This document shows positions 27,872-40,024 of a stretch of DNA of 64,000 nt, in pieces (position 1 is the stretch's first letter; each line of letters begins with the position of its first letter). The notes below the pieces were generated by a model that saw only the letters and a list, made by a program, of their open reading frames with translations, did no database searches and was not told where the DNA came from. The stretch covers positions 1 through 64,000 of the forward strand of contig JAFGXR010000001.1 in the NCBI GenBank assembly GCA_016936555.1, written 5' to 3'. The stretch is from Spirochaetales bacterium (GTDB lineage: Bacteria; Spirochaetota; Spirochaetia; DSM-2461). The position numbers and the translations under genes were made by a program.

Positions 27872-29581
27872 ATGAACGAATTTTTTAAACGTATAATTGA
27901 ACAGCTCAAGTCCTTCTGGACGAAATGGTCGGTTGTTCAGAAAATCATCTTTTTCGCCATTGTGGCGGTAACGGTTGTCGGGCTGGTTCTTCTGGTCAGT
28001 TTTTCCGCGTCTCCGTCCATGGTCAAACTGATCAACACGCCGATCACCGATGTGGAACAGCGCGACAAAATCATTGTCAGCCTGACAGAGCAGAATGTGG
28101 ACAGCAAGATTACGACCGACGGGTACATCATGGTTCCCGATGAAAGTTCGGCCAAGAAAATGCGCGCTATTCTGATCCGCGACGGTATCATCACCGATAC
28201 GACAGATCCCTGGGCCCTATTCGATGAGGACCGGTGGACTCTGACCGATTTTGAACGGAACGTCAATCTCAGACGGGCGATCATCGCCTCGATGGAACAG
28301 CATATAGAAGCGCTCGACGATGTGGATTCGGCTAAGATCACGCTGGTTATGCCGGAAAAGGAACTCTTTGTCGATCAGCAGGATCCCGTAACCGCTTCGG
28401 TTATCATCACGCCCAGACCGGGCAGTGATATATCGGAGAACAGAAAAAAAGTCGAAGGGATCGTCAAACTGATCCAGTTCGGCGTTCAGGGGCTTCTTCC
28501 CGAAAATATCACGATCATGGATTACTCGGGGAATGTCCTCAATGATTTTGAAGGGCTGGAAGATGCCACCCGCCTGACTATCGTAGAACGTATGCTCAAC
28601 CAGAAAAAAAGGCTCGAAGCCCAGTATATGAGCAAGATTCTCAGTTCCCTCAGAAATATCTATTCCCCCCAGAGAGTGGAAATCCTCAATATCGAAATTG
28701 ATCTGGAGTTCATCAACAAACAGGTGGAGACGGAAGAGCATTTTCCCATTACCATGAGAGAGGATGATCCCAACACGCCCTACAGTGAATATGAAGGTGT
28801 TCCCTCCATACTGGAATCGTCCCAGGCGGAAAATGAGTTGTTCGAGGGGACGGGATTCAATCCCGAGGGGCCTCCGGGGCAGGAAGGCCAGACGCCTCCG
28901 GCCTACCAGGATCTCTCCTCCCTGGTCGGCAAATACTCGAAAGACAATGAAATCCAGAACTTCGTGGTCAATACGCGCAATATTTCGGAAGACAGCAATC
29001 CCTTCCAGATCTCCCGGATCAGCGTGGCCGTGGCCATAGACGGCATCTGGAAAAAGAAATTCGATGACGGCGGCAAACTGGTCATCACTCCCGAGGGCAG
29101 TATCGACAGGACATATGTTCCGGTCAGTACCGAAGACCTGGCCATTTCCGAGAACCTGGTCGCCACGGCGGTAGGCTATAATAAGGGAAGGGGCGATGTC
29201 GTTTCCGTTTCTCATATTCCCTTCGATCGGACGTCGGAACACGAGGAAGAGGATGCAGAGTACAGAAGGCGTCAGCAGATACAGCAGACCGTACTGTTCT
29301 CCCTGATCGGTCTGGCTATTTTCGTTGTGGCGGCGGTCATCTTCAGGATCATTTCAAAAGAGATGGAGAGAAGGCGGCGCCTGCGAGAGGAAGAGCTGTC
29401 GCGGCAGCATCAGGCCATGAGAGAGGCGGCTTTGAGAAGCGCCGAGGAAGAGGGCATCGATGTGGAAATGTCGGTCCAGGAAAGAGCCAGAATCGAAATG
29501 CAGGAAAACGCCATCAATATGGCCAGAGAGCATCCTGAAGATGTGGCGCAACTTATAAGAACATGGCTGGCGGAGGAATAG
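27872..29581 (+). CDS. fliF: flagellar MS-ring protein FliF
   Basis: Two TMs, SAKITLVMPEKELFVDQQDPVTASVIITPRPG. Confidence 0.96.
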   Translation: MNEFFKRIIEQLKSFWTKWSVVQKIIFFAIVAVTVVGLVLLVSFSASPSMVKLINTPITDVEQRDKIIVSLTEQNVDSKITTDGYIMVPDESSAKKMRAILIRDGIITDTTDPWALFDEDRWTLTDFERNVNLRRAIIASMEQHIEALDDVDSAKITLVMPEKELFVDQQDPVTASVIITPRPGSDISENRKKVEGIVKLIQFGVQGLLPENITIMDYSGNVLNDFEGLEDATRLTIVERMLNQKKRLEAQYMSKILSSLRNIYSPQRVEILNIEIDLEFINKQVETEEHFPITMREDDPNTPYSEYEGVPSILESSQAENELFEGTGFNPEGPPGQEGQTPPAYQDLSSLVGKYSKDNEIQNFVVNTRNISEDSNPFQISRISVAVAIDGIWKKKFDDGGKLVITPEGSIDRTYVPVSTEDLAISENLVATAVGYNKGRGDVVSVSHIPFDRTSEHEEEDAEYRRRQQIQQTVLFSLIGLAIFVVAAVIFRIISKEMERRRRLREEELSRQHQAMREAALRSAEEEGIDVEMSVQERARIEMQENAINMAREHPEDVAQLIRTWLAEE

Positions 29582-29582
29582 A

Positions 29583-30608
29583 ATGGCAAAGCAGGGTTCA
29601 ACCCATAAAGAAGACTTAACGGGAAGGCAGAAAGCGGCCATATTCCTCGTCACCCTGGGCTCGGAGATCTCCGCGGAGATCTTCAAGCACCTCAGAGAGG
29701 ACGAGATCGAAACGCTCACTTTCGAGATAGCCCGTCTGGAAAATATCGATTCGGAACAGAGGGATCTGGTGCTGCAGGAGTTCCAGGAGCTCATGATGGC
29801 TCAGGACTTTATTTCCTCCGGCGGTATCGATTACGCCAGGGAGCTTCTGGAGAAATCACTGGGGAACCAGAAAGCGGTCGATATTATCAGCCGCCTGACC
29901 AGTTCTCTCAAAACCCGTCCCTTCGATTTTATCCGGAGGACCGACCCGGCTCATCTGCTCAACTTTATCCAGCAGGAGCATCCCCAGACCATCGCCCTGA
30001 TCCTGGCCTATCTGGAACCGGCCAAGGCGTCGGTCATACTGGGGAATCTGCCCCAGGAAAAGCAGTCCGATGTCGCCAAGAGAATCGCCACCATGGACCG
30101 TACTTCGCCGGAAGTCCTGAGAGAGGTGGAAAGGGTTCTGGAGAAGAAACTGTCTTCTCTGTCTCAGGAGGACTACACGGCGGCCGGCGGTGTCGGGGCC
30201 ATTGTCGATATCCTCAACCTCGTCGACCGTTCGACCGAGAAGATCATCATCGAGTCCCTTGAAGAGGACGATCCGGAACTTGCCGAAGAGATCAAGAAAC
30301 GCATGTTCGTATTCGAAGATATCGTTATGCTCGATGACAGGGCCATTCAGAAGGTTATGCGTGAGGTCGATACGAACGAACTGGCCAAAGCCCTCAAAGC
30401 CGTCGATCCCGATGTTCAGGACAAGATATACAGGAACATGTCCAAACGGGCCGCCGCTCTCCTCAAAGAGGATATGGAGTTTATGGGGCCGACGCGGAGA
30501 AAGGATGTTGAGGAAGCTCAGCAGAAAATCGTTTCGATCATCAGGAAACTGGAAGAACAGGGTGAAGTCGTCATCGCCAGAAGCGGCGAAGAGGATGTTC
30601 TGGTATAA
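29583..30608 (+). CDS. fliG: flagellar motor switch protein FliG
   Basis: LTGRQKAAIFLVTLGSEISAEIFKHLREDEIETLTFEIA; EHPQTIALILAYL. Confidence 0.97.
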   Translation: MAKQGSTHKEDLTGRQKAAIFLVTLGSEISAEIFKHLREDEIETLTFEIARLENIDSEQRDLVLQEFQELMMAQDFISSGGIDYARELLEKSLGNQKAVDIISRLTSSLKTRPFDFIRRTDPAHLLNFIQQEHPQTIALILAYLEPAKASVILGNLPQEKQSDVAKRIATMDRTSPEVLREVERVLEKKLSSLSQEDYTAAGGVGAIVDILNLVDRSTEKIIIESLEEDDPELAEEIKKRMFVFEDIVMLDDRAIQKVMREVDTNELAKALKAVDPDVQDKIYRNMSKRAAALLKEDMEFMGPTRRKDVEEAQQKIVSIIRKLEEQGEVVIARSGEEDVLV

Positions 30609-30632
30609 CAGAACCGCTTAAGGAGTTGAGTC

Positions 30633-31547
30633 GTGGCAAAAAGTGTATTCAGACCGCAGGAAATAGTGAATCTCACAGCGCAGAAGGTCAAAATTGAAGC
30701 TCCCGTTTTCGAAACGGAAGTGGAGGAAGTGGAAGAACTTGAAGAGTTTGAATACACGGGACCCACGGCGGAGGACCTGAAGCGGGAAGCCGATGCCTTC
30801 AAAGCCTCCTGGGAGCGGGAAAAGCAGGCCATGATCGAAGAGGCCCAGGCCCGTGCAGAGGCCATTATCCGCGAAGCCGAGGAGACCGCCTTCGAAGAGG
30901 TCCGCAAGAAAACGGACCAGGCCACGGCGGAAAAACAGAACGCCGAGGAAGAGGCCCAGAAAACCCGGGAAAGTGCCGAAGCCGAAGCGGCGCGCCTCCG
31001 CGGCGATACGGAGCGGCAGATCGAGGACTTTAAAAAAGACGCTTATGAGAAGGGTTATGAAGCGGGCCGCGAAGAGGGTTTCAAATCGGGCGAAGCGGAA
31101 GTGGCGCGGCTGATCGACCGGATTCATACGATCATGAATAAATCGATTGAAAAGAGGATCGAAATTATTGAGGAAGCGGAATCCCAGCTTATCGATCTGG
31201 TCCTGCAGATCTCACGGAAGGTGATCAAAGTCGTTTCGGAAAACCAGAAAAACGTGGTTATCAACAATGTCGTCCAGGCTCTGAGAAAGATGAAGAGCCG
31301 GGGTGATGTGGCTATCAAAGTCAATCTGGCGGACCTGGAGATCACCACGGAGCACACTCAGGACTTCCTGCGCATGGTTGAAAACGTCAAATCCATTACA
31401 GTTCTTGAAGATTCCTCCGTGGACAAGGGGGGATGCATCATCGAAACCGATTTCGGCCAGATCGATGCGAGAATCTCCTCGCAGCTTAAGGAAATCGAAG
31501 AAAAGATCCTCGATATCGTGCCAATTAAGACGGGAATTGAGTCTTAA
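30633..31547 (+). CDS. fliH: flagellar export regulator FliH (GTG start)
   Basis: Long charged coiled coil, GYEAGREEGFKSG; position between fliG and fliI. Confidence 0.92.
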   Translation: MAKSVFRPQEIVNLTAQKVKIEAPVFETEVEEVEELEEFEYTGPTAEDLKREADAFKASWEREKQAMIEEAQARAEAIIREAEETAFEEVRKKTDQATAEKQNAEEEAQKTRESAEAEAARLRGDTERQIEDFKKDAYEKGYEAGREEGFKSGEAEVARLIDRIHTIMNKSIEKRIEIIEEAESQLIDLVLQISRKVIKVVSENQKNVVINNVVQALRKMKSRGDVAIKVNLADLEITTEHTQDFLRMVENVKSITVLEDSSVDKGGCIIETDFGQIDARISSQLKEIEEKILDIVPIKTGIES

Positions 31548-31556
31548 GGGGGATTT

Positions 31557-32903
31557 ATGCAGATTCTGGAGAAGTATTTTACCGTTCTCGACTCGATGGA
31601 CTCCATTAAATGCACCGGAACAGTCACGAAAGTTCAGGGTGTCATCATCGAGAGTCTCGGCCCCGTCGCCGCGGTCGGCGAGGTCTGCAAAATCGAGATT
31701 CCCCGGGGGAACCGGGAAGTCTATGCCGAAGTGGTCGCCCTGAAAGGGGATGCCGTCCAGCTTATGCCTTACGATGAAATGCACGGTATCGAGCTGGGGT
31801 GCAAGGTTATTGCCACAGGTGAAATGCTCACCGTCAATGTTTCCGCTGATATGCTCGGACGGGTTCTCGACGGAAGGGGCAATCCTATCGATGACAAAGG
31901 GCCTATCCCCTGTTGTGATGTCTATCCTGCCATGAATCCCCCCCCCGATTCCATGAAGAGGAAAATGATCAAGGAGCGGATCGTCACGGGAGTGCGGGCC
32001 ATCGACGGTCTGATTCCCGTGGGAAGAGGCCAGCGGCTGGGGATTTTCTCCGGTTCCGGGGTCGGAAAATCGACATTGCTCAGTATGATCGCCCGCAATA
32101 CCAATGCCGATATCAACGTCATCGCCCTGATCGGGGAAAGAGGACGGGAAGTCCGCGAATTTATAGAGAATGACCTGGGGGAAGAAGGTTTGAAGCGGTC
32201 TGTCGTGATCGTCTCGACCTCCGACACGCCGGCTCTCTCCCGTGTCCGCGGGGCATTCGTCGCCACGGCCGTCGCCGAGTATTTCCGGGATCAGGGGAAG
32301 GACGTTATGCTCCTTTTCGATTCGGTGACCCGTTTCGCCATGTCTCAGAGGGAGATCGGGCTGGCCATCGGCGAGCCTCCGGCATCAAAGGGATACACGC
32401 CCAGTGTTTTCACCCTTCTCCCCAAGCTGCTCGAGCGTTCGGGAACGTCGGATAAAGGTTCCATTACGGGCATCTATACGGTTCTGGTGGAAGGGGGTGA
32501 TATGGATGACCCCGTTGCCGACACGGTCAGAGGTATCCTCGACGGCCATATTGTTCTTTCCAGAAAGCTGGCGGAAAAATATCACTATCCCGCCATCGAT
32601 GTGCTCAGTTCCATTTCGAGGCTGGAGCCGGCTATCACCAACCCCGCAACCAGAAGGGGATTCGGGAATATCCGGAGACTGCTGGCCCTCTATACGGAAA
32701 AAGAGGACCTGATCAATATCGGCGCCTATGTGAAGGGGAGCAATGACGAGATTGATGAGGCCATCGATAAAATAGGTGAAATCAACTCCTTCCTGCGGCA
32801 GGGAACCCATGAAAAGGCCGAGCTGGACAGAACCATGGATCTGGGCGGAGAGATCTCCGGCATAGATCTTTTCCCCGAGCGGATAATCGATGAAGAAGTT
32901 TGA
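31557..32903 (+). CDS. fliI: flagellar export ATPase FliI
   Basis: GQRLGIFSGSGVGKSTLLSMIARNT, VIALIGERGREVREF, LLFDSVTRFAMSQREIGLA. Confidence 0.97.
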   Translation: MQILEKYFTVLDSMDSIKCTGTVTKVQGVIIESLGPVAAVGEVCKIEIPRGNREVYAEVVALKGDAVQLMPYDEMHGIELGCKVIATGEMLTVNVSADMLGRVLDGRGNPIDDKGPIPCCDVYPAMNPPPDSMKRKMIKERIVTGVRAIDGLIPVGRGQRLGIFSGSGVGKSTLLSMIARNTNADINVIALIGERGREVREFIENDLGEEGLKRSVVIVSTSDTPALSRVRGAFVATAVAEYFRDQGKDVMLLFDSVTRFAMSQREIGLAIGEPPASKGYTPSVFTLLPKLLERSGTSDKGSITGIYTVLVEGGDMDDPVADTVRGILDGHIVLSRKLAEKYHYPAIDVLSSISRLEPAITNPATRRGFGNIRRLLALYTEKEDLINIGAYVKGSNDEIDEAIDKIGEINSFLRQGTHEKAELDRTMDLGGEISGIDLFPERIIDEEV

Positions 32904-33324
32904 GTTTTCCCTGCAGACAGTTCTGAATCTCAGGGAAAGCGAAGAGCGGGAGTGGGAGAACAGACTGGCCGCTGTAACCGGCGAATGCGCCAGACTGAGA
33001 AGAGATATCAGCGGTTACAAAGAGGAGAAGAACCGCTGTGCCCTTGAAAACACACTCCGCGATGTGAACAGTCTACTGGCCGTTGCCAATTATCAGGCCC
33101 TTATGGACAGAAAAGCCGATGAAGCGCGGCGGCAGCTCTCTCTGAAGGAAAAAGAGAGGGAAAGAGTGCTGAAAGACTTTATTGAAGCGTCGAAAAAACG
33201 GAAAATTCTGGACAAACTGAAAGAGAAACAGCACGATGAGTATCATCATGAGCGAATCAAATACGAAGAAAAAATGAACGATGACCTGAATATCTCCCGC
33301 AGGGCCAGGGTAAACGGAGGATAA
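32890..33324 (+). CDS. fliJ: FliJ-like flagellar export chaperone
   Basis: KKFEFSLQTVLNLRESEEREWENRLA; coiled coil; position. Confidence 0.88.
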   Translation: MKKFEFSLQTVLNLRESEEREWENRLAAVTGECARLRRDISGYKEEKNRCALENTLRDVNSLLAVANYQALMDRKADEARRQLSLKEKERERVLKDFIEASKKRKILDKLKEKQHDEYHHERIKYEEKMNDDLNISRRARVNGG

Positions 33325-33325
33325 C

Positions 33326-33946
33326 ATGGCGAGTGCAGCCGGCAATGTCTTGAAAATATTTCTGCTATTGCTTCTCATAGCGGTATTGATTGTGGGAGGC
33401 GCTATCTGGTTCGATTACCTGGGGGTTATCGATGCCAAGGAGCAGCTGTCTCCCGTCACCTCACTCCTGGGGATTAAATCGCCGGAAGTGATTGAAGAAG
33501 TTTCCCAGCCTATCGTTCTGGACCGCGAAAGAATGAATATGCAGATCGAGGCACTCGACCTGCTCCGCGATGAGCTGGCTAAGCGGGAAGCGGCTGTCCA
33601 GCTGTCCGAGGCGGAAATCCTCCAGAAGCAGACGGAACTGGAAGAGAGGGAGAAGGCGCTGGACGAAAAGGAGAAATCTATTAACGATGCGCTGAACCGC
33701 TATAACAACAAGCAGACGAATCTGGAACAGAACGCCCGGTATCTGGAAGGCATGCCGCCGGAAGACGCCGTGAATATCATGATGAAAATGGAAAACCTCG
33801 ATGTGGTCGACGTTCTGAGAACCGCCGAAAGACTGGCTCAGGAGGAGGGGCGGAACTCTCTGGTTTCCTACTGGATTTCCCTTATGACGCCGGAAAAAGG
33901 GGCGGCCATCCAGAAGTTGATGGCCGATGAGCCGAAAACCAATTGA
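33326..33946 (+). CDS. flbB: FlbB-like periplasmic flagellar protein (MotE/MgtE-N-like)
   Basis: N-terminal TM, coiled coil, EGMPPEDAVNIMMKMENLDVVDVLRTAERLAQEEGRNSLVSYWISLMTPEKGAAIQKLM; spirochaete gene order. Confidence 0.8.
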   Translation: MASAAGNVLKIFLLLLLIAVLIVGGAIWFDYLGVIDAKEQLSPVTSLLGIKSPEVIEEVSQPIVLDRERMNMQIEALDLLRDELAKREAAVQLSEAEILQKQTELEEREKALDEKEKSINDALNRYNNKQTNLEQNARYLEGMPPEDAVNIMMKMENLDVVDVLRTAERLAQEEGRNSLVSYWISLMTPEKGAAIQKLMADEPKTN

Positions 33947-33949
33947 TAG

Positions 33950-34425
33950 GTGGGACTCTATTACTACGGATTCAGGGATTACAGTCCGGTGATGCAGAGA
34001 TTTACGACTGTTGATCCCATAAAAGCAGGTAGCAACTGGTATTCCTATGTGTCCAATGACCCTGTGAATCTGATCGATCCGTTCGAGTTGACGGAGAGTG
34101 ACTCTCAATCATCAACAAATCCTTTTGTGATATGGGCAGAAAAACCAAATGGAGCACCTTTGACTGATGCTGAAGCAGCTGTACAAACAGGCATTGGATC
34201 TGGAGAAATGGTACTCGGCGCAGCAGGTGTTGTTGTCTCGGGAACTGCTTCTACCGTTGGTGGTGCATATGGATTTTCCCATCGTTATGGGCTATGGCTG
34301 ATGGTGCAAATTTAATTAGTGAAGTACAAAATAATACCAAAGCTACACCTGGGGATATGTTTATTCAACTTGCAAGCACGTTGATTAATATGGGTGATAT
34401 TGATTTCGTAGTTCCGCTACCTTAG
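33950..34425 (+). pseudogene. RHS-repeat core C-terminus plus variable tip, truncated 5' and frameshifted
   Basis: GLYYYGFRDYSPVMQRFTTVDPIKAGSNWYSYVSNDPVNLIDPFEL (RHS core motif); in-frame stop at 34313-34315, but the alternate frame continues A MADGANLISEVQNNTKATPGDMFIQLASTLINMGDIDFVVPLP* to 34425. Confidence 0.75.
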
Positions 34426-34433
34426 GAGAAATT

Positions 34434-34649
34434 ATGACTCAAACAATTATTGCGTTATCAGCATTTGTTATATTTGGTCTCTTTATCTCTATTATATCAA
34501 TACGTAGATATTTGAAGTTTCGAAATTTGAAAGATGATATGAAGTTAAGGAAGAAACAGGTAATTTCAAGCATAATTGGAATGGTTCTAGGGATACCTGT
34601 GACACTGTTCTTTATTTATGTTGTCTCAGTTCTTATTTTTAATTCTTAA
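34434..34649 (+). CDS. small two-TM protein, candidate immunity protein for the RHS tip
   Basis: MTQTIIALSAFVIFGLFISIISIRRYLKF...IIGMVLGIPVTLFFIYVVSVLIFNS; starts 8 nt after the RHS tip stop, with RBS aggaga. Confidence 0.55.
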   Translation: MTQTIIALSAFVIFGLFISIISIRRYLKFRNLKDDMKLRKKQVISSIIGMVLGIPVTLFFIYVVSVLIFNS

Positions 34650-34939
34650 TAATGGATTTGTATATGTTTATATTTTGAGCCCCGATGTTCTCAGAATGTT
34701 GGTTCTGGGAATCCAAAGGGTGATCTTAAAAGACCAGCAGGTCCAGCCCTCCGCCGTCGTGGCTTCGGGCTTAGACAAAATTTTCGTTTTAGTCAGCCGG
34801 CATCCGTGCCGGCGGTTCGTTCGCTTTCGCTCACCAGAAAACGAAGATTCTGAATCCATCGGAATAAAGCGCGCTTTGCTTGCATTGCACATTGTTCGAG
34901 GCTGCGAGTCTCGCCTCTCATCTGCAAGTTGTATAAATG

Positions 34940-34979
34940 CGGTCAGTTGATTTTGAATTAAGAATCAGCTGACCGTTTT
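34940..34979. repeat. hairpin (13-bp stem) followed by TTTT, possible terminator
   Basis: cggtcagttgatt-ttgaattaag-aatcagctgaccg. Confidence 0.6.
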
Positions 34980-35332
34980 GCGTTTCTGGTTAAAGTGTAT
35001 ACTGTTACAACGGCGGCGGGATTCTTCGAAACCATCACCTTTTATATCCGCCGACAGATCCGGTCAAAAAACCTCATTCTGAGGATCTTTTACCGGATCA
35101 GTCGTTGTTTCAACTGGTATCCAGTCATGTGACCGGATTGAGAAATCCGCTCAACTCTGAGTGGGGAAGTCGCACAGAATCTCGGATATCGGGCGAGCTT
35201 GCGAGCGAACAGCCGCTAGGATACCGTCCGCTGATCACATACCCTTGATGTGTGATTATTAAAAAGGAAAAAACCTGTGAGAACAGATGAAAGAGAGGTA
35301 CATTAGTGTTAGAGTATGACAGGAGGATCAGT

Positions 35333-35578
35333 ATGTCATCGGAAATGAAAGATTATGAATTGAACGGACGCATAGACAAGAATCATCATCTGGTGATCGA
35401 GGAGAAAGACATTCCTCTTGATCCTCAGGATGTGACAATCATTGTACGCCCGAAAAGCGCCGAAGACAGAAAAGCCCGTTTCGAAAGACTCAAGGCACTT
35501 CAGGGTTCATTGAAAGATTGGGGTGTCGATGGAGTCGAGTATCAGAGAGAACTGCGGAAAGAATGGGATAACAGATGA
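35333..35578 (+). CDS. VapB-like antitoxin
   Basis: MSSEMKDYELNGRIDKNHHLVIEEKDIPLDPQDVTIIVRP...GSLKDWGVDGVEYQRELRKEWDNR; RBS aggagg; overlaps the PIN gene by 4 nt. Confidence 0.8.
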   Translation: MSSEMKDYELNGRIDKNHHLVIEEKDIPLDPQDVTIIVRPKSAEDRKARFERLKALQGSLKDWGVDGVEYQRELRKEWDNR

Positions 35579-35952
35579 GATACCTGTTGGACACCAACGC
35601 CGTAGTGTACTGTCTGGAAGGCGTTTTCCCTCTCTTTGAAAAGATATCCTTTGAAGATGAATTGTTTCTCTCCTTTATTTCCCGGATAGAACTGTATTGC
35701 GGCAAGAACAATGAAGATCAGGAGTTTTCGATTCGCCGGTTTGTCAGTGACCTGGTTGAGTTTGAAACAGACGGCGACATTACCGAGCGGACTATCTTTG
35801 TCCGGAAAAAGTATGGGCTGAAAATTCCCGATGCGATTATTGTTGCTACCGCTATCGAGAAAGGTTTAACTCTGGTAACAGCTGACAAGGAAATTCTGAA
35901 AAAGGTAAAAGATATTGAGATCATTGATCCTCTGGAATGGTCAAAGGCTTGA
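35575..35952 (+). CDS. PIN-domain toxin (VapC family)
   Basis: LLDTNAVVYCL, ISRIELYCGK, GLKIPDAIIVATAIEKGLTLVTADKEI: acidic PIN residues present. Confidence 0.9.
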   Translation: MRYLLDTNAVVYCLEGVFPLFEKISFEDELFLSFISRIELYCGKNNEDQEFSIRRFVSDLVEFETDGDITERTIFVRKKYGLKIPDAIIVATAIEKGLTLVTADKEILKKVKDIEIIDPLEWSKA

Positions 35953-36007
35953 GATAACTGTTGTTTTTGAATCCTGTACGTGAATCCGAACAGATGATTT
36001 TCTCGAA

Positions 36008-36103
36008 ATGTCTAACTCCATGGGAGCAAAGGCTTTCGGGGGCGTAGGTCTCTATTACTTCAATGCACGGTGGTATGATCCGCAGCAGGTGTATTATATT
36101 TGA
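36008..36103 (+). pseudogene. short RHS core fragment
   Basis: MSNSMGAKAFGGVGLYYFNARWYDPQQVYYI*: GLYYFNARWYDP RHS signature, then truncation. Confidence 0.75.
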
Positions 36104-36156
36104 GGTTTCTTCAAATGAGAGGTACATTAATGTTAGAGTATTCTAGAGGTTGCAGT

Positions 36157-36414
36157 ATGGCAGTAGAAGTGAAAAAGATAGAATTAACAGGTCATGTCGA
36201 CAGGAACGGTCATTTGAAGCTGGAAGCTGATGTTCCATTTAAACAGGGCGATGTAAAGGTTTTACCTGCAACGGGATCTGAAGTAGTCGAAGATGAAGAT
36301 ATCTCGACTATGGATATCCTGAGAACCGCTCAGGCCGGAGGGGCTTTTGATTTTTTGAATGACCCGGAAGAAGATATTTACACTTTGGAAGACGGAGTTC
36401 CATTTAATGATTAA
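36157..36414 (+). CDS. antitoxin-like protein with N-terminus related to the VapB-like protein at 35333
   Basis: VKKIELTGHVDRNGHLKLEADVPFKQGDVKVLP matches KDYELNGRIDKNHHLVIEEKDIPLDPQDVTIIV by eye; C-terminus DPEEDIYTLEDGVPFND; overlaps a MazF-like start. Confidence 0.75.
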   Translation: MAVEVKKIELTGHVDRNGHLKLEADVPFKQGDVKVLPATGSEVVEDEDISTMDILRTAQAGGAFDFLNDPEEDIYTLEDGVPFND

Positions 36415-36520
36415 AGGAAAAATTGTTCTGGCGCCGTTTCCTTTTACCGACTTAACATCGAGTAAAGTAAGACCTGTCTTATGCCTGTCCGAGCACATCG
36501 GTTCACATAAGTATATTTAG
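36407..36520 (+). pseudogene. truncated MazF/PemK-family toxin
   Basis: MIKGKIVLAPFPFTDLTSSKVRPVLCLSEHIGSHKYI*: typical PemK N-terminus, stops after 37 aa. Confidence 0.75.
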
Positions 36521-36679
36521 ATCGCCGTCAATGGCCATTTCAAAGTATTCCCGAAAACCCGGATCATTCTCCAGCCGGAAGTTGAATTCTCCGGATTTCA
36601 AATATTCGATTGCCCCGGACCAGGGAAGCTGAAAAAAAAATCCATAATTCAATCCGCAAATAATTTCACTTAACCAACT
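36503..36679 (-). pseudogene. unidentified reverse-strand coding remnant without start
   Basis: Open frame SWLSEIICGLNYGFFFQLPWSGAIEYLKSGEFNFRLENDPGFREYFEMAIDGDLNILM*; no family recognised. Confidence 0.3.
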
Positions 36680-36725
36680 TTAAAAACGGTCGAAAATTAA
36701 AAAGAGTAAACATCCTGGAGGATTT

Positions 36726-38120
36726 ATGACCTCAACGATAAACGCTCTTATGCAGTCCGGCCCGCCGGAACAGAAGAGCCGGATTACAAAAACGGAAAGC
36801 CCTTCCCGGCAGGACGGCTCCGATAACCGCTTTAAAGACTCTCTCGAAAAAGCCATGAACGGCAATGAAGAGAAAGAAGCGGCAAAAAGCGGCGAAAAAT
36901 CAGAAGCGACTGCGGTTGCTGACAAAAAAGAAGTCAGCGATGTAAAGAAGAAATCTGAATCAGCAGACGGTGAAAAGAAACTCTCATCTGAAAAAACTCT
37001 CAATTTCCCCCGGGGAGATAAAAAACCGGTTTTGAAGATCAAGGGAGAAAAGTCCGGCGAAGAAGATTCTGAAGATGTTTCAAATGAGTCGGTTTCTCAG
37101 CTTATTGATAATGAATCAATAAAAAAGAGGCTTTCAACTGCCAGAGCAAATGATTCAGAAAACTCCCGGCGAATAGTAAAAAAAGATGAAAAGCCTTCAG
37201 GCGGGGCAGTAAAAGACCGGAGTCCCGAACAGATTGTCTCCGGGAATCCTCTGGAAACAGAACATGTTGTTGATGATAAATTGAAATCCCTGATGCCTGA
37301 AAAGGAACGGAAGATTTCTGATTCCGAAGAAAAAGGTGCGGAAAGCGTAATAATCCCCTTCCCGAAAGCAGGCGATAGTAAAACGGCGGAAATGGCATCT
37401 GCTCAGAATCAGGCATCTGAAAAATTTGTCAGTACGGCAAAAGAGCCGGCTTCCAGGCTGAAGAAAGGCAAGGATGAGCCGGTCCTGACCGTTATCGATA
37501 CCCGATCCAAAGGAGCGGAGAACCGGGAGACGGCCCAGGGGCTCACAAAAGCATCAGCCTCAGTGGAAACGACGGACCAAACCTCGAAGGAATCGAACCA
37601 GATCGTTCTCGGGGAACAGGCTGCCGATAAAGCTTCCGGAGAGGAAACCAGATCATTTCAGAGCCGCTTTACTGAAAACCGGGAAGTCGTGCTGGCCCGG
37701 GAATTGCGGGAATCGGGCAATGAGCAGATTGTCAGAAAAGCTTCGTTTATTCTCAAGGACAGCAACCAGGGTGAGATCAGACTCATCCTCAAACCCGAGG
37801 CTCTGGGGCAGGTCAAAATTCATCTCGATATGAATGAAAACAATTTAGTCGGAAAAATTATTGTCGAGAATCATAGGGTGGGACAGATCTTCGAAAACAA
37901 TCTGAGCAATCTGTCCAAAGCCTTTGAGGAAGCCGGAATCAGCAGTTCATCCATTGAAGTGACAGTGGGAGACGGCAACGGCCGGAACGGGGGAAACCAA
38001 GCCTCGCGGGAAGATCAGCCCTTCTTCAGCGAAAGACTTAAAACCCTTGATAAGGCTGTTCCCTCGGTAGAACGGATGGCTTCCGGTCTGGGAACACAGC
38101 ATATCAATCTGGTCATATAA
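36726..38120 (+). CDS. fliK: flagellar hook-length control protein FliK
   Basis: Low-complexity charged N-terminus; C-terminal ASFILKDSNQGEIRLILKPEALGQVKIHLDMNENNLVGKIIVENHRVGQIFENNLSNLSKAFEEAGI. Confidence 0.92.
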   Translation: MTSTINALMQSGPPEQKSRITKTESPSRQDGSDNRFKDSLEKAMNGNEEKEAAKSGEKSEATAVADKKEVSDVKKKSESADGEKKLSSEKTLNFPRGDKKPVLKIKGEKSGEEDSEDVSNESVSQLIDNESIKKRLSTARANDSENSRRIVKKDEKPSGGAVKDRSPEQIVSGNPLETEHVVDDKLKSLMPEKERKISDSEEKGAESVIIPFPKAGDSKTAEMASAQNQASEKFVSTAKEPASRLKKGKDEPVLTVIDTRSKGAENRETAQGLTKASASVETTDQTSKESNQIVLGEQAADKASGEETRSFQSRFTENREVVLARELRESGNEQIVRKASFILKDSNQGEIRLILKPEALGQVKIHLDMNENNLVGKIIVENHRVGQIFENNLSNLSKAFEEAGISSSSIEVTVGDGNGRNGGNQASREDQPFFSERLKTLDKAVPSVERMASGLGTQHINLVI

Positions 38121-38136
38121 GGAATAAGGAGATTTC

Positions 38137-38571
38137 ATGGATTTTTCAACATTGATGTCATCTACAGATCAATCCAAAGTGTCAATGCAGGTTGACGCCT
38201 TCAATAAAACCATTAATGCGGGGAGAGTCCGCAAGGACGGTCTCGATAAGGATGATTTTCTGAAAATCCTCATCTCCCAGCTCTCCAACCAGGATCCGAC
38301 CAAACCGATGGAAGATAAGGAATTCATTGCCCAGATGGCCCAGTTCTCCTCTCTGGAGCAGATGACCAATATGAGCAGCGAGTTCGCCAAAGTGGCTGAC
38401 AGAATCCAGTCCTCCCAGGCTCTGGGCATGCTCGGGCGGACAGTGGAAATCGCCCAGGGCGATAACCTTGTCAGTGGAAAAGTCGAGGCTGTAACAGGCG
38501 GTGAATACCCCAACATCCTCGTTGACGGAAAATATTACGGACTGGAAAGTGTTTCCAGGATCAGAGAATAA
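38137..38571 (+). CDS. flgD: flagellar hook capping protein FlgD
   Basis: KDDFLKILISQLSNQDPTKPMEDKEFIAQMAQFSSLEQMTNM. Confidence 0.96.
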   Translation: MDFSTLMSSTDQSKVSMQVDAFNKTINAGRVRKDGLDKDDFLKILISQLSNQDPTKPMEDKEFIAQMAQFSSLEQMTNMSSEFAKVADRIQSSQALGMLGRTVEIAQGDNLVSGKVEAVTGGEYPNILVDGKYYGLESVSRIRE

Positions 38572-38587
38572 GAGGAGATTGTAAGTT

Positions 38588-39976
38588 ATGATGCGATCAC
38601 TATACTCCGGTGTTTCCGGACTGCAGAATCATCAGGTGAGAATGGATGTTATCGGTAACAACATCTCCAATGTCAATACAATCGGTTTTAAAAAGGGACG
38701 TGTCAATTTTCAGGACATGATCTCCCAGAGCATGGGCGGAGCCGCCAAGCCGACGGAGGAGCTGGGAGGGGTTAACCCCAAGCAGATCGGTCTCGGTATG
38801 GCCGTGGCCTCCATCGACACGATCCACACCCAGGGATCCCTTCAGACGACCGGTAAGACCGATGACGTGGCTGTCCAGGGCAACGGATTCTTCATTATGC
38901 GGTCCGGTGCGAAAGAGTTCTATACCAGAGCCGGTGCTTTCGGGCTCGATCAGGATGGAATGCTCGTCAATCCCGCGAACGGAATGCTCGTTCAGGGCTG
39001 GTCCGCCGAAGTCGTCGACGGACAGAGATTTATCAATACGGCCGCCGATCCGGGAGATCTCTATATACCCATAGGCGGGAAAGACCCCGCTTCCGCCACC
39101 ACGGAAGTGGAGTTCGCCTGCAACCTCGACAAGAGGATGCCCGAAGTTGCTGAAGGAGCCGGCGCCGCGGAAACCCGCGAGGGGACCTGGTCCATAGACA
39201 AGGATCTTTACGACACATTCGGAAATGTACACAAACTGAATATCAGTTTCACGAAAGTTCCTGGAGTGGCCAATCAGTGGGAAGCGACTGTTACAGTGGA
39301 CGGCGACGCGGAAGTGGATACCAACACGCTGACAAATATCGGAGCCGAAGGAAATACGACCAATACGTTCCTTCTCAACTTCGATAACCTTGGATCGCTG
39401 GCTTCGGTTGAAGATGCCCAGGGCGATGCCATTACGGAAGGCTCTCTTCTGATTCCCATCGCCTTCGATGTAGCCGATACGACGCCCGACGGAGAAGGGA
39501 ACCAGATCAGACAGATATTCAATCTTAATCTCGGTGATGTGGGCAGCTATACGAACTCCATCACCCAGTTCGCCGAGACATCATCCACCAAAGCTTTTAA
39601 ACAGGACGGATACGGCATGGGATATCTCGACACGTTCAAGATCGATCAGAGCGGTATCATCACCGGTGTCTATTCAAACGGGACGAACCGCGAACTGGGA
39701 CAGATAGCCCTGGCCTCCTTCGTTAATCCCGGCGGACTGGAAAAAGCAGGTGACACCACATTCGTGGTTTCCAATAACTCGGGCGATCCCAATATCGGAC
39801 CTTCGGGAATCGCAGGGAAAGGGAAGTTTATCGCCGGTGCTCTGGAAATGAGTAACGTCGATCTGGCTGAACAGTTTACCGACATGATCGTCACTCAAAG
39901 AGGTTTCCAGGCCAACAGCAAGACCATCACCACGTCGGACCAGATGCTTCAGGAACTGCTGACTCTGAAACGGTAA
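38588..39976 (+). CDS. flgE: flagellar hook protein FlgE
   Basis: [45 protein letters not shown]-terminal [33 protein letters not shown]. Confidence 0.97.
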
Positions 39977-39988
39977 TAATTGAAATCC

Positions 39989-40024
39989 CGTTATAGGGGA
40001 CACTCGCGAGTGTCCCCTATAACG
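39989..40024. repeat. perfect 36-bp palindrome between flgE and flbD
   Basis: CGTTATAGGGGACACTCG|CGAGTGTCCCCTATAACG. Confidence 0.95.

What the first reader, a model, noticed from the sequence alone, without database searches (positions are those of the whole stretch)
33950..34649. Orphan RHS C-terminal tip with a candidate cognate immunity protein
The RHS core motif (GLYYYGFRDYSPVMQRFTTVDP...NWYSYVSNDPVNLIDP) leads into a variable tail with a hydrophobic Gly/Ala-rich stretch. It reaches a stop at 34315 but continues in another frame to 34425. A 71-aa two-TM protein starts 8 nt later. RHS/CDI systems are known to displace toxin-tip/immunity cassettes. A hydrophobic tip beside a membrane protein would fit a membrane-targeting effector with membrane immunity; that pairing is inference.
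Basis: partly seen in the sequence, partly recalled or inferred. Interest (0 to 1): 0.7.

Follow-up and report, generated by a model that had tools for sequence, protein, structure and literature searches.

The report
Broken, stranded RHS toxin tip cassette
A fragment of a bacterial "RHS" weapon, namely the last piece of its toxin-carrying arm plus a small membrane protein that probably protected the owner, sits stranded and frame-broken inside a spirochaete's flagellar gene cluster; intact relatives elsewhere show that it belongs to an undescribed toxin/protector family that travels on two unrelated delivery vehicles.

Summary
At 33950 an RHS core 3' end (Rhs_assc_core, E 2.6e-14) runs into a ~100-residue glycine-rich tip. 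A tip profile built only from other genomes matches the window in two different frames, 34118-34258 (E 1.4e-9) and 34282-34422 (E 7.8e-10), so the tip is one ancestral reading frame now broken. Intact homologues were found in three other Spirochaetia genomes. Each is followed within about 50 nt by a 70-78-aa two-helix membrane protein, as in the window. Two carriers are RHS proteins; the third is a protein with a double-glycine leader, beside a C39-peptidase ABC exporter. This is a polymorphic toxin/immunity family with no convincing Pfam, NCBIfam, PHROGs, PADLOC or PDB match. The window's 71-aa protein shares size, topology and position with the other partners, but homology is unproven. The cassette lies in a 2.7-kb island between flbB and fliK, absent from the closest relative, with toxin-antitoxin genes and a second RHS scrap. 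Orphan rhs-CT/rhsI modules are a known kind; the tip family and its use by two vehicles look new. The likely mode is membrane depolarisation, as for Tse5/Tsi5 and CDI ionophores; this is inferred. The window copy is probably a relic.

The parts
33326..33946 (+). flbB-like flagellar gene (left neighbour of the island)
   Evidence: 94% identical, complete orthologue in G002 directly upstream of fliK; the name is by gene order (fliJ upstream, fliK downstream in relatives) and general knowledge of spirochaete flagellar operons
33947..36661 (.). Acquired island of about 2.7 kb, in place of part of the 146-nt flbB-fliK spacer of the closest relative
   Evidence: Alignment with G002: left identity stops at 33933 (flbB stop at 33946), right identity resumes at 36662; G+C falls from about 0.52 to 0.30-0.47
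33950..34087 (+). RHS core remnant, starting abruptly at GLYYY
   Evidence: TIGR03696 E 2.6e-14, model positions 26-73 of 76; no RHS similarity further upstream in any frame
34088..34315 (+). Variable tip, first half (frame of the core), ending at a premature stop
   Evidence: 57% identical over 64 aa to the intact tip of G085; profile A3 positions 2-48 at 34118-34258
34282..34425 (+). Variable tip, second half, in another frame, ending in TAG
   Evidence: Profile A3 positions 54-102, E 7.8e-10; 52% identical to the end of the G223 tip
34424..34428 (+). Shine-Dalgarno-like AGGAG before the 71-aa gene, overlapping the tip's stop
   Evidence: Sequence; the same stop-TAGGAGAA arrangement occurs in L034
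34434..34649 (+). 71-aa two-TM protein, candidate immunity
   Evidence: Hydropathy, two-helix model, same position and size as the partners of intact tips
34939..34976 (+). Terminator-like hairpin downstream of the cassette (16 bp stem, few T)
   Evidence: consensus scan only
35306..35952 (+). VapBC-like toxin-antitoxin pair (90-aa antitoxin candidate 35306-35578, PIN-domain toxin 35575-35952)
   Evidence: PF01850 PIN E 5.1e-14; the antitoxin is assigned by position only
36044..36092 (+). Second RHS core scrap (GVGLYYFNARWYDPQQ)
   Evidence: Translation; exact match to the degenerate core pattern
36100..36520 (+). Second, apparently truncated toxin-antitoxin-like pair (104 aa and 53 aa)
   Evidence: ORFs; upstream 62 nt 79% identical to that of the 35306 gene; no family match, so tentative
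36726..38120 (+). fliK (right neighbour of the island)
   Evidence: PF02120 E 1.7e-14

Best explanation
This is a displaced (orphan) RHS C-terminal toxin/immunity cassette from a polymorphic toxin system. In an intact carrier, the RHS shell (or, in one relative, a double-glycine-leader protein exported by a C39-peptidase ABC transporter) delivers the ~100-aa glycine-rich C-terminal tip to a competing bacterium. There the tip most likely inserts into the inner membrane and dissipates the membrane potential. The adjacent two-TM protein blocks it in the producer's own membrane. In this genome the cassette arrived in a horizontally acquired island between flbB and fliK with only about 45 codons of RHS core, and its tip frame has since broken, so the toxin is inactive; the immunity gene is intact and may still be read. 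SHOWN: RHS core remnant, tip homology in two frames, conserved tip-plus-two-TM gene pair in three other genomes, carrier switching, absence of the island in the relative. INFERRED: toxicity, membrane target, protection by the 71-aa protein, and horizontal arrival.
For: RHS core match. Profile A3 hits in two frames. Intact tips with adjacent two-TM genes in G085/L034, G254/L035 and G223/L036-L037. Vehicle switching: RHS core TIGR03696 E 2e-20 and 7e-10 in two carriers, against a double-glycine leader (TIGR03949 0.006, PF10439 0.018, both below cut-off) next to a C39 peptidase (E 5.8e-39) in the third. Hydropathy and two-helix model. Empty site in G002. Literature: orphan rhs-CT/rhsI modules resemble displaced fragments and usually lack start signals (PMC3967940, PMC3150448); Tse5, an Rhs pore former, has an immunity protein with two predicted TM regions (PMC9637101); CDI ionophore immunities are two-helix hairpins (PMC11630599).
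Against: No tip of this family has been tested. Tip hydrophobicity is only moderate (best 19-residue means 1.4-1.8) and the tip model is unusable (pLDDT 34). The window's 71-aa protein does not match the other immunities at a reliable level. The only close relative of the 71-aa protein (28 aa, 71%, G107) has no tip or RHS remnant nearby.
Confidence: 0.66

Rival explanations
1. The tip is a genuine toxin but an enzyme; the Gly-rich hydrophobic part is only the translocation (entry) segment and the last ~40 residues (PGDMY...SPLP) carry the activity, blocked by a membrane-anchored immunity protein.
For: The most conserved block outside the Gly-rich part is the VMADGANLV...NPGDMY...IP..SPLP tail; hydrophobicity is only moderate.
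Against: The post-glycine segment is only about 40 residues, short for an enzyme; no catalytic signature or family match; all partner proteins are short two-TM hairpins with no soluble domain to cover an active site.
Confidence: 0.25
2. The 71-aa window protein is not the cognate immunity but an unrelated small membrane protein; the true immunity gene was lost and the tip is plain debris.
For: Only 22-25% identity in a forced alignment, hhalign probability 13%; profile A4 does not find it; its closest relative lies near a RelE-type toxin-antitoxin pair with no tip.
Against: Same length, charge (+5 to +7), topology, strand, spacing and overlapping stop/SD arrangement as the verified partners. 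Immunity proteins diverge fast: two cross-related CDI immunities are 36% identical (PMC11630599).
Confidence: 0.25
3. The frame break is a sequencing or assembly error and the orphan tip is an intact, translated gene coupled to flbB.
For: The genome is a 134-contig draft; the GTG at 33950 lies 3 nt after the flbB stop, so coupled translation is possible.
Against: Both tip halves match the family, but the stretch between them (about 34259-34281) has also diverged from it. An intact toxin in an expressed flagellar operon with no secretion part would be costly.
Confidence: 0.15
4. The region is a chance ORF or part of a housekeeping gene, not an RHS feature.
For: None found.
Against: RHS core and tip profile E-values; island absent from the relative.
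Confidence: 0.01

Closest known systems
Orphan rhs-CT/rhsI modules (Poole et al. 2011, PMC3150448; Koskiniemi et al. 2014, PMC3967940)
   Same: 3' RHS fragment with a short core remnant, variable C-terminal tip, small downstream immunity ORF, no secretion part
   Different: Those orphans are described downstream of a main rhs or cdi locus; this one is far from any intact rhs gene, inside a flagellar operon, has only about 45 core codons, and is frame-broken
Tse5/Tsi5 of Pseudomonas aeruginosa (PMC9637101)
   Same: Rhs C-terminal tip paired with an immunity protein that has two predicted TM regions; pore formation depolarises the target
   Different: Profiles A3 and A4 found no convincing PDB relative; Tse5-CT is 149 residues against about 100 here; activity untested here
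CDI ionophore toxins and their CdiI proteins (PMC11630599)
   Same: Membrane-targeted C-terminal toxins neutralised by small two-helix hairpin membrane proteins that are highly polymorphic
   Different: Carried by CdiA, with an entry domain plus a five-helix ionophore domain; the tip here is shorter and carried by RHS or double-glycine-leader proteins
Double-glycine-leader proteins beside Treponema ABC exporters with a C39 domain (tepA, PMC4947327)
   Same: The G223 carrier has a bacteriocin-like leader ending in VNGG and lies beside a C39-peptidase ABC exporter
   Different: That paper describes putative double-glycine proteins, not exchangeable RHS-type tips with adjacent immunity

Membership tests
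Orphan rhs-CT/rhsI module | 3' fragment of an RHS gene that includes the end of the conserved core | tested here: met
   TIGR03696 positions 26-73, E 2.6e-14
Orphan rhs-CT/rhsI module | Variable C-terminal tip found on full carriers elsewhere | tested here: met
   Intact homologous tips at the C-termini of two RHS carriers and one double-glycine-leader carrier; the G085 RHS gene is cut by the contig end
Orphan rhs-CT/rhsI module | Small immunity gene immediately downstream | tested here: inconclusive
   A two-TM ORF is present 8 nt downstream; homology to the other partners is weak
Orphan rhs-CT/rhsI module | Main rhs gene nearby to recombine with | tested here: not met
   Intact rhs genes lie on contigs C77 and C57 with different tips and about 50% identical core ends. 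This is a usual setting rather than a strict criterion, so it lowers the chance that the tip is re-used, not the orphan status
Orphan rhs-CT/rhsI module | Tip toxic, neighbour protects | not testable with these tools
   Needs expression assays
Pore-forming Rhs/CDI membrane toxin (Tse5-like or CDI ionophore-like) | Hydrophobic, membrane-spanning tip | tested here: inconclusive
   Gly-rich segments of moderate hydropathy; model pLDDT 34
Pore-forming Rhs/CDI membrane toxin (Tse5-like or CDI ionophore-like) | Two-TM hairpin immunity | tested here: met
Pore-forming Rhs/CDI membrane toxin (Tse5-like or CDI ionophore-like) | Sequence relationship to the known toxins | tested here: not met
   No convincing Pfam, NCBIfam, PHROGs, PADLOC or PDB match of the tip. 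Not filed as a member; 'works like' only

The most novel reading that the evidence does not exclude
A previously undescribed family of about 100-aa membrane-depolarising toxin tips with two-helix membrane immunity proteins is exchanged, as a tip-plus-immunity unit, between two unrelated delivery vehicles in Spirochaetia: RHS shells, and double-glycine-leader proteins exported by C39-peptidase ABC transporters. In addition, orphan RHS scraps in this taxonomic family arise by a recurrent breakage at the GLYYFNARWYDP codons.
Probability: 0.4. Interest if true: 0.62.

Novelty: new member of a known kind. Interest (0 to 1): 0.42.

Why it matters
Little was found on RHS weapons of spirochaetes: a search of the paper library for spirochaetes, RHS, polymorphic toxins and immunity proteins together gave two papers, one a broad survey and one on Rickettsia. 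An undescribed tip/immunity family that sits behind both an RHS core and a bacteriocin-type leader would show that tip cassettes cross between shell-delivered and ABC-exported systems, and gives intact pairs that can be tested directly. The repeated breakpoint of RHS scraps at one conserved core motif, several of them beside toxin-antitoxin genes, gives a testable clue to how orphan tips spread. The window copy itself is a relic and by itself ordinary.

Tried and rejected
Searching the 71-aa protein alone in 41 relatives gave only chance-level matches. The tip was sought in plasmids, phages and viral contigs: none. G329 matched profile A3 at 1.2e-4 but is a long repetitive protein matched in 'AADGT'-like strands: rejected. 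PDB matches to designed WD40 proteins are composition matches: rejected. The AlphaFold2 model of the tip (pLDDT 34, 2 sequences) was discarded and no fold search was run on it. The T4SS_pilin hit of the 71-aa protein (E 0.001, below Pfam's cut-off) was taken as generic hydrophobic similarity. No Rfam RNA (only a sub-threshold microRNA match), tRNA or tandem repeat marks the island ends. An integron-cassette origin was considered because of hairpins near orphan scraps, but no array of attC-like sites was demonstrated and it was not pursued. One weak tblastn hit of RHS core to a non-coding frame of the 35306 antitoxin was judged chance.

Full report
CHECK OF THE OBSERVATION. The window lies on contig C73 of a 4.7-Mb, 134-contig genome. 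Gene order 27872-40000 is a flagellar operon (fliF-, fliG-, fliH-, fliI- and fliJ-like, an flbB-like gene, then fliK and flgD/flgE-like genes; names of genes not run through Pfam rest on the sequences and general knowledge). The ORF 33950-34315 begins GLYYYGFRDYSPVMQRFTTVDPIKAGSNWYSYVSNDPVNLIDP and is recognised by the NCBI RHS core model (TIGR03696) from model position 26 to 73 with E 2.6e-14. The premature stop, the continuation in another frame to 34425, and the 71-aa ORF at 34434-34649 are all present.

THE TIP IS A REAL FAMILY. A search of 297 genomes of the class with the first tip half found homologues in three other genomes: G085 (57% identity over 64 aa, E 1.3e-17; JAIPFV010000150, a Spirochaetia MAG), G254 (E 1e-5; a Treponema sp. 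MAG, JAEEIU010000052) and G223 (E 0.002, two copies). All are intact C-termini. A profile made only from these three (A3) then matches the window in two pieces that together span the profile, positions 2-48 at 34118-34258 and 54-102 at 34282-34422, in two different frames, with E 1.4e-9 and 7.8e-10. This establishes without any repair that the window tip is one ancestral reading frame that has been broken between about 34259 and 34281.

THE PARTNER. In every one of the three genomes the tip gene is followed on the same strand by a 70-78-aa protein with two hydrophobic segments. In G085 the gap is 15 nt and the stop is followed by TAGGAGAA, as in the window. The three partners resemble each other (31-38% identity, SVRSILIGKG-KHP motif). 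The window's 71-aa protein has the same length, net charge, topology and position, but only 22-25% identity in a forced alignment; profile comparison gives E 0.002 with probability 13% and the partner profile does not retrieve it. Its one clear relative is a 31-aa 3' remnant in G107 (71% over 28 aa) between an unrelated gene and a RelE-type toxin-antitoxin pair, with no tip nearby. So the pairing in the window rests on position and architecture, not on proven homology. AlphaFold2 gives a two-helix hairpin for it (pLDDT 77). The partner family is rare (6 of 395 class genomes) and occurs three times without a neighbouring tip, once between other RHS-type ORFs, as expected of orphan immunity genes.

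CARRIERS. In G085 and G254 the tip ends an RHS protein (TIGR03696 E 2e-20 and 7e-10). In G223 the carrier is not RHS: it begins MKMFLEGFQELDHAELINVNGGYA, a double-glycine bacteriocin-type leader (best matches TIGR03949 E 0.006 and PF10439 E 0.018, both below the curated cut-offs). It lies in an array of ORFs with the same leader and different C-termini, next to a C39 peptidase ORF (E 5.8e-39) and ABC transporter domains. One tip-plus-partner unit therefore sits behind two unrelated N-termini, which is the hallmark of polymorphic toxin tips.

THE ISLAND. In the closest relative, G002 (flbB-like protein 94% identical), the flbB-fliK spacer is 146 nt. In the window identity stops in the last codons of flbB (33933) and resumes at 36662, so about 2.7 kb is extra. 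The island holds the RHS cassette, a VapBC-like pair (PIN domain E 5e-14), a second RHS core scrap of 16 codons at 36044-36092 and an apparently truncated second toxin-antitoxin-like pair. Two more RHS scraps elsewhere in this genome sit the same way: C106, followed by BrnT/BrnA (PF04365, PF14384), and C82, followed by an unassigned small gene. The genome's two full-length rhs genes (C77, C57) have other tips and core ends about 50% identical to the window's.

RECURRENT BREAKPOINT. Of eleven RHS scraps checked in this taxonomic family, seven (window 33950, window 36044, C82, three in G007, one in G003) start within about nine codons of LYY(F/Y)NARWYDP and show no RHS similarity further upstream in any frame; three keep 13-20 more codons and C106 keeps more. 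The scraps were picked by that motif, so only the upstream end is informative. No formal null was computed.

MECHANISM. Shown: gene structure, homology, carrier switching and the empty site. Inferred: the tip is a toxin, because it has the position and exchange pattern of polymorphic toxin tips; it acts on the membrane, because it is Gly-rich with moderately hydrophobic segments, is too short for an evident enzyme, has no catalytic family match, and its partners are bare two-TM hairpins. The nearest tested analogues are Tse5 with Tsi5 (two predicted TM regions; PMC9637101) and the CDI ionophores, whose immunities are two-helix hairpins (PMC11630599). Confidence is about 0.9 that this is a displaced tip cassette, about 0.85 that the window toxin is broken, and about 0.5 that the intact family depolarises membranes.

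KNOWN OR NEW. Orphan rhs-CT/rhsI modules are a described kind (PMC3150448, PMC3967940). New here, as far as these libraries show, are the tip family, its partner family, their sharing between RHS and double-glycine carriers, and dispersal far from any matching rhs gene. The window copy alone would score low; the family behind it raises the interest.

Noticed in passing
window 36044-36092; L032 4844-4939; L104, L115, L117, L123: RHS core scraps repeatedly begin within a few codons of GLYY(F/Y)NARWYDP, with no RHS similarity upstream: a recurrent 5' breakpoint at a motif that is highly conserved at the DNA level.
   Followed up: partly
L049 (G223 C1:2458000-2476000): Array of ORFs sharing the leader MKMFLEGFQ(E/K)LDH-(V)NGGYA with different C-terminal domains and interleaved small genes, ending in a C39 peptidase/ABC exporter: looks like a polymorphic, ABC-exported toxin locus.
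   Followed up: partly
window 35306-36520; L031 5668-6229; L038 1602-2275: Type II toxin-antitoxin genes (VapBC-like, BrnTA, RelE-type) lie beside RHS or immunity scraps at separate chromosomal sites.
   Followed up: partly
window 34729-34856 and L027 (C106:28338-28464): A 128-nt non-coding stretch, 70% identical, occurs in both the flagellar island and the C106 island; a 30-nt piece (window 34892-34921) recurs on contigs C74 and C36.
   Followed up: no
window 35290-35351 and 36114-36174: The upstream regions of the two toxin-antitoxin-like pairs are 79% identical over 62 nt, suggesting duplication or a shared operator.
   Followed up: no
L043 1357-3717 and 3741-4364: In G085 a second RHS gene with a different tip and a 207-aa hydrophobic, probably polytopic neighbour follows directly: a tandem RHS tip array.
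   Followed up: no
L009 (C77) and L010 (C57): Two full-length, clearly related RHS genes of about 1690 aa with different tips and different secreted-looking downstream proteins in the same genome.
   Followed up: no
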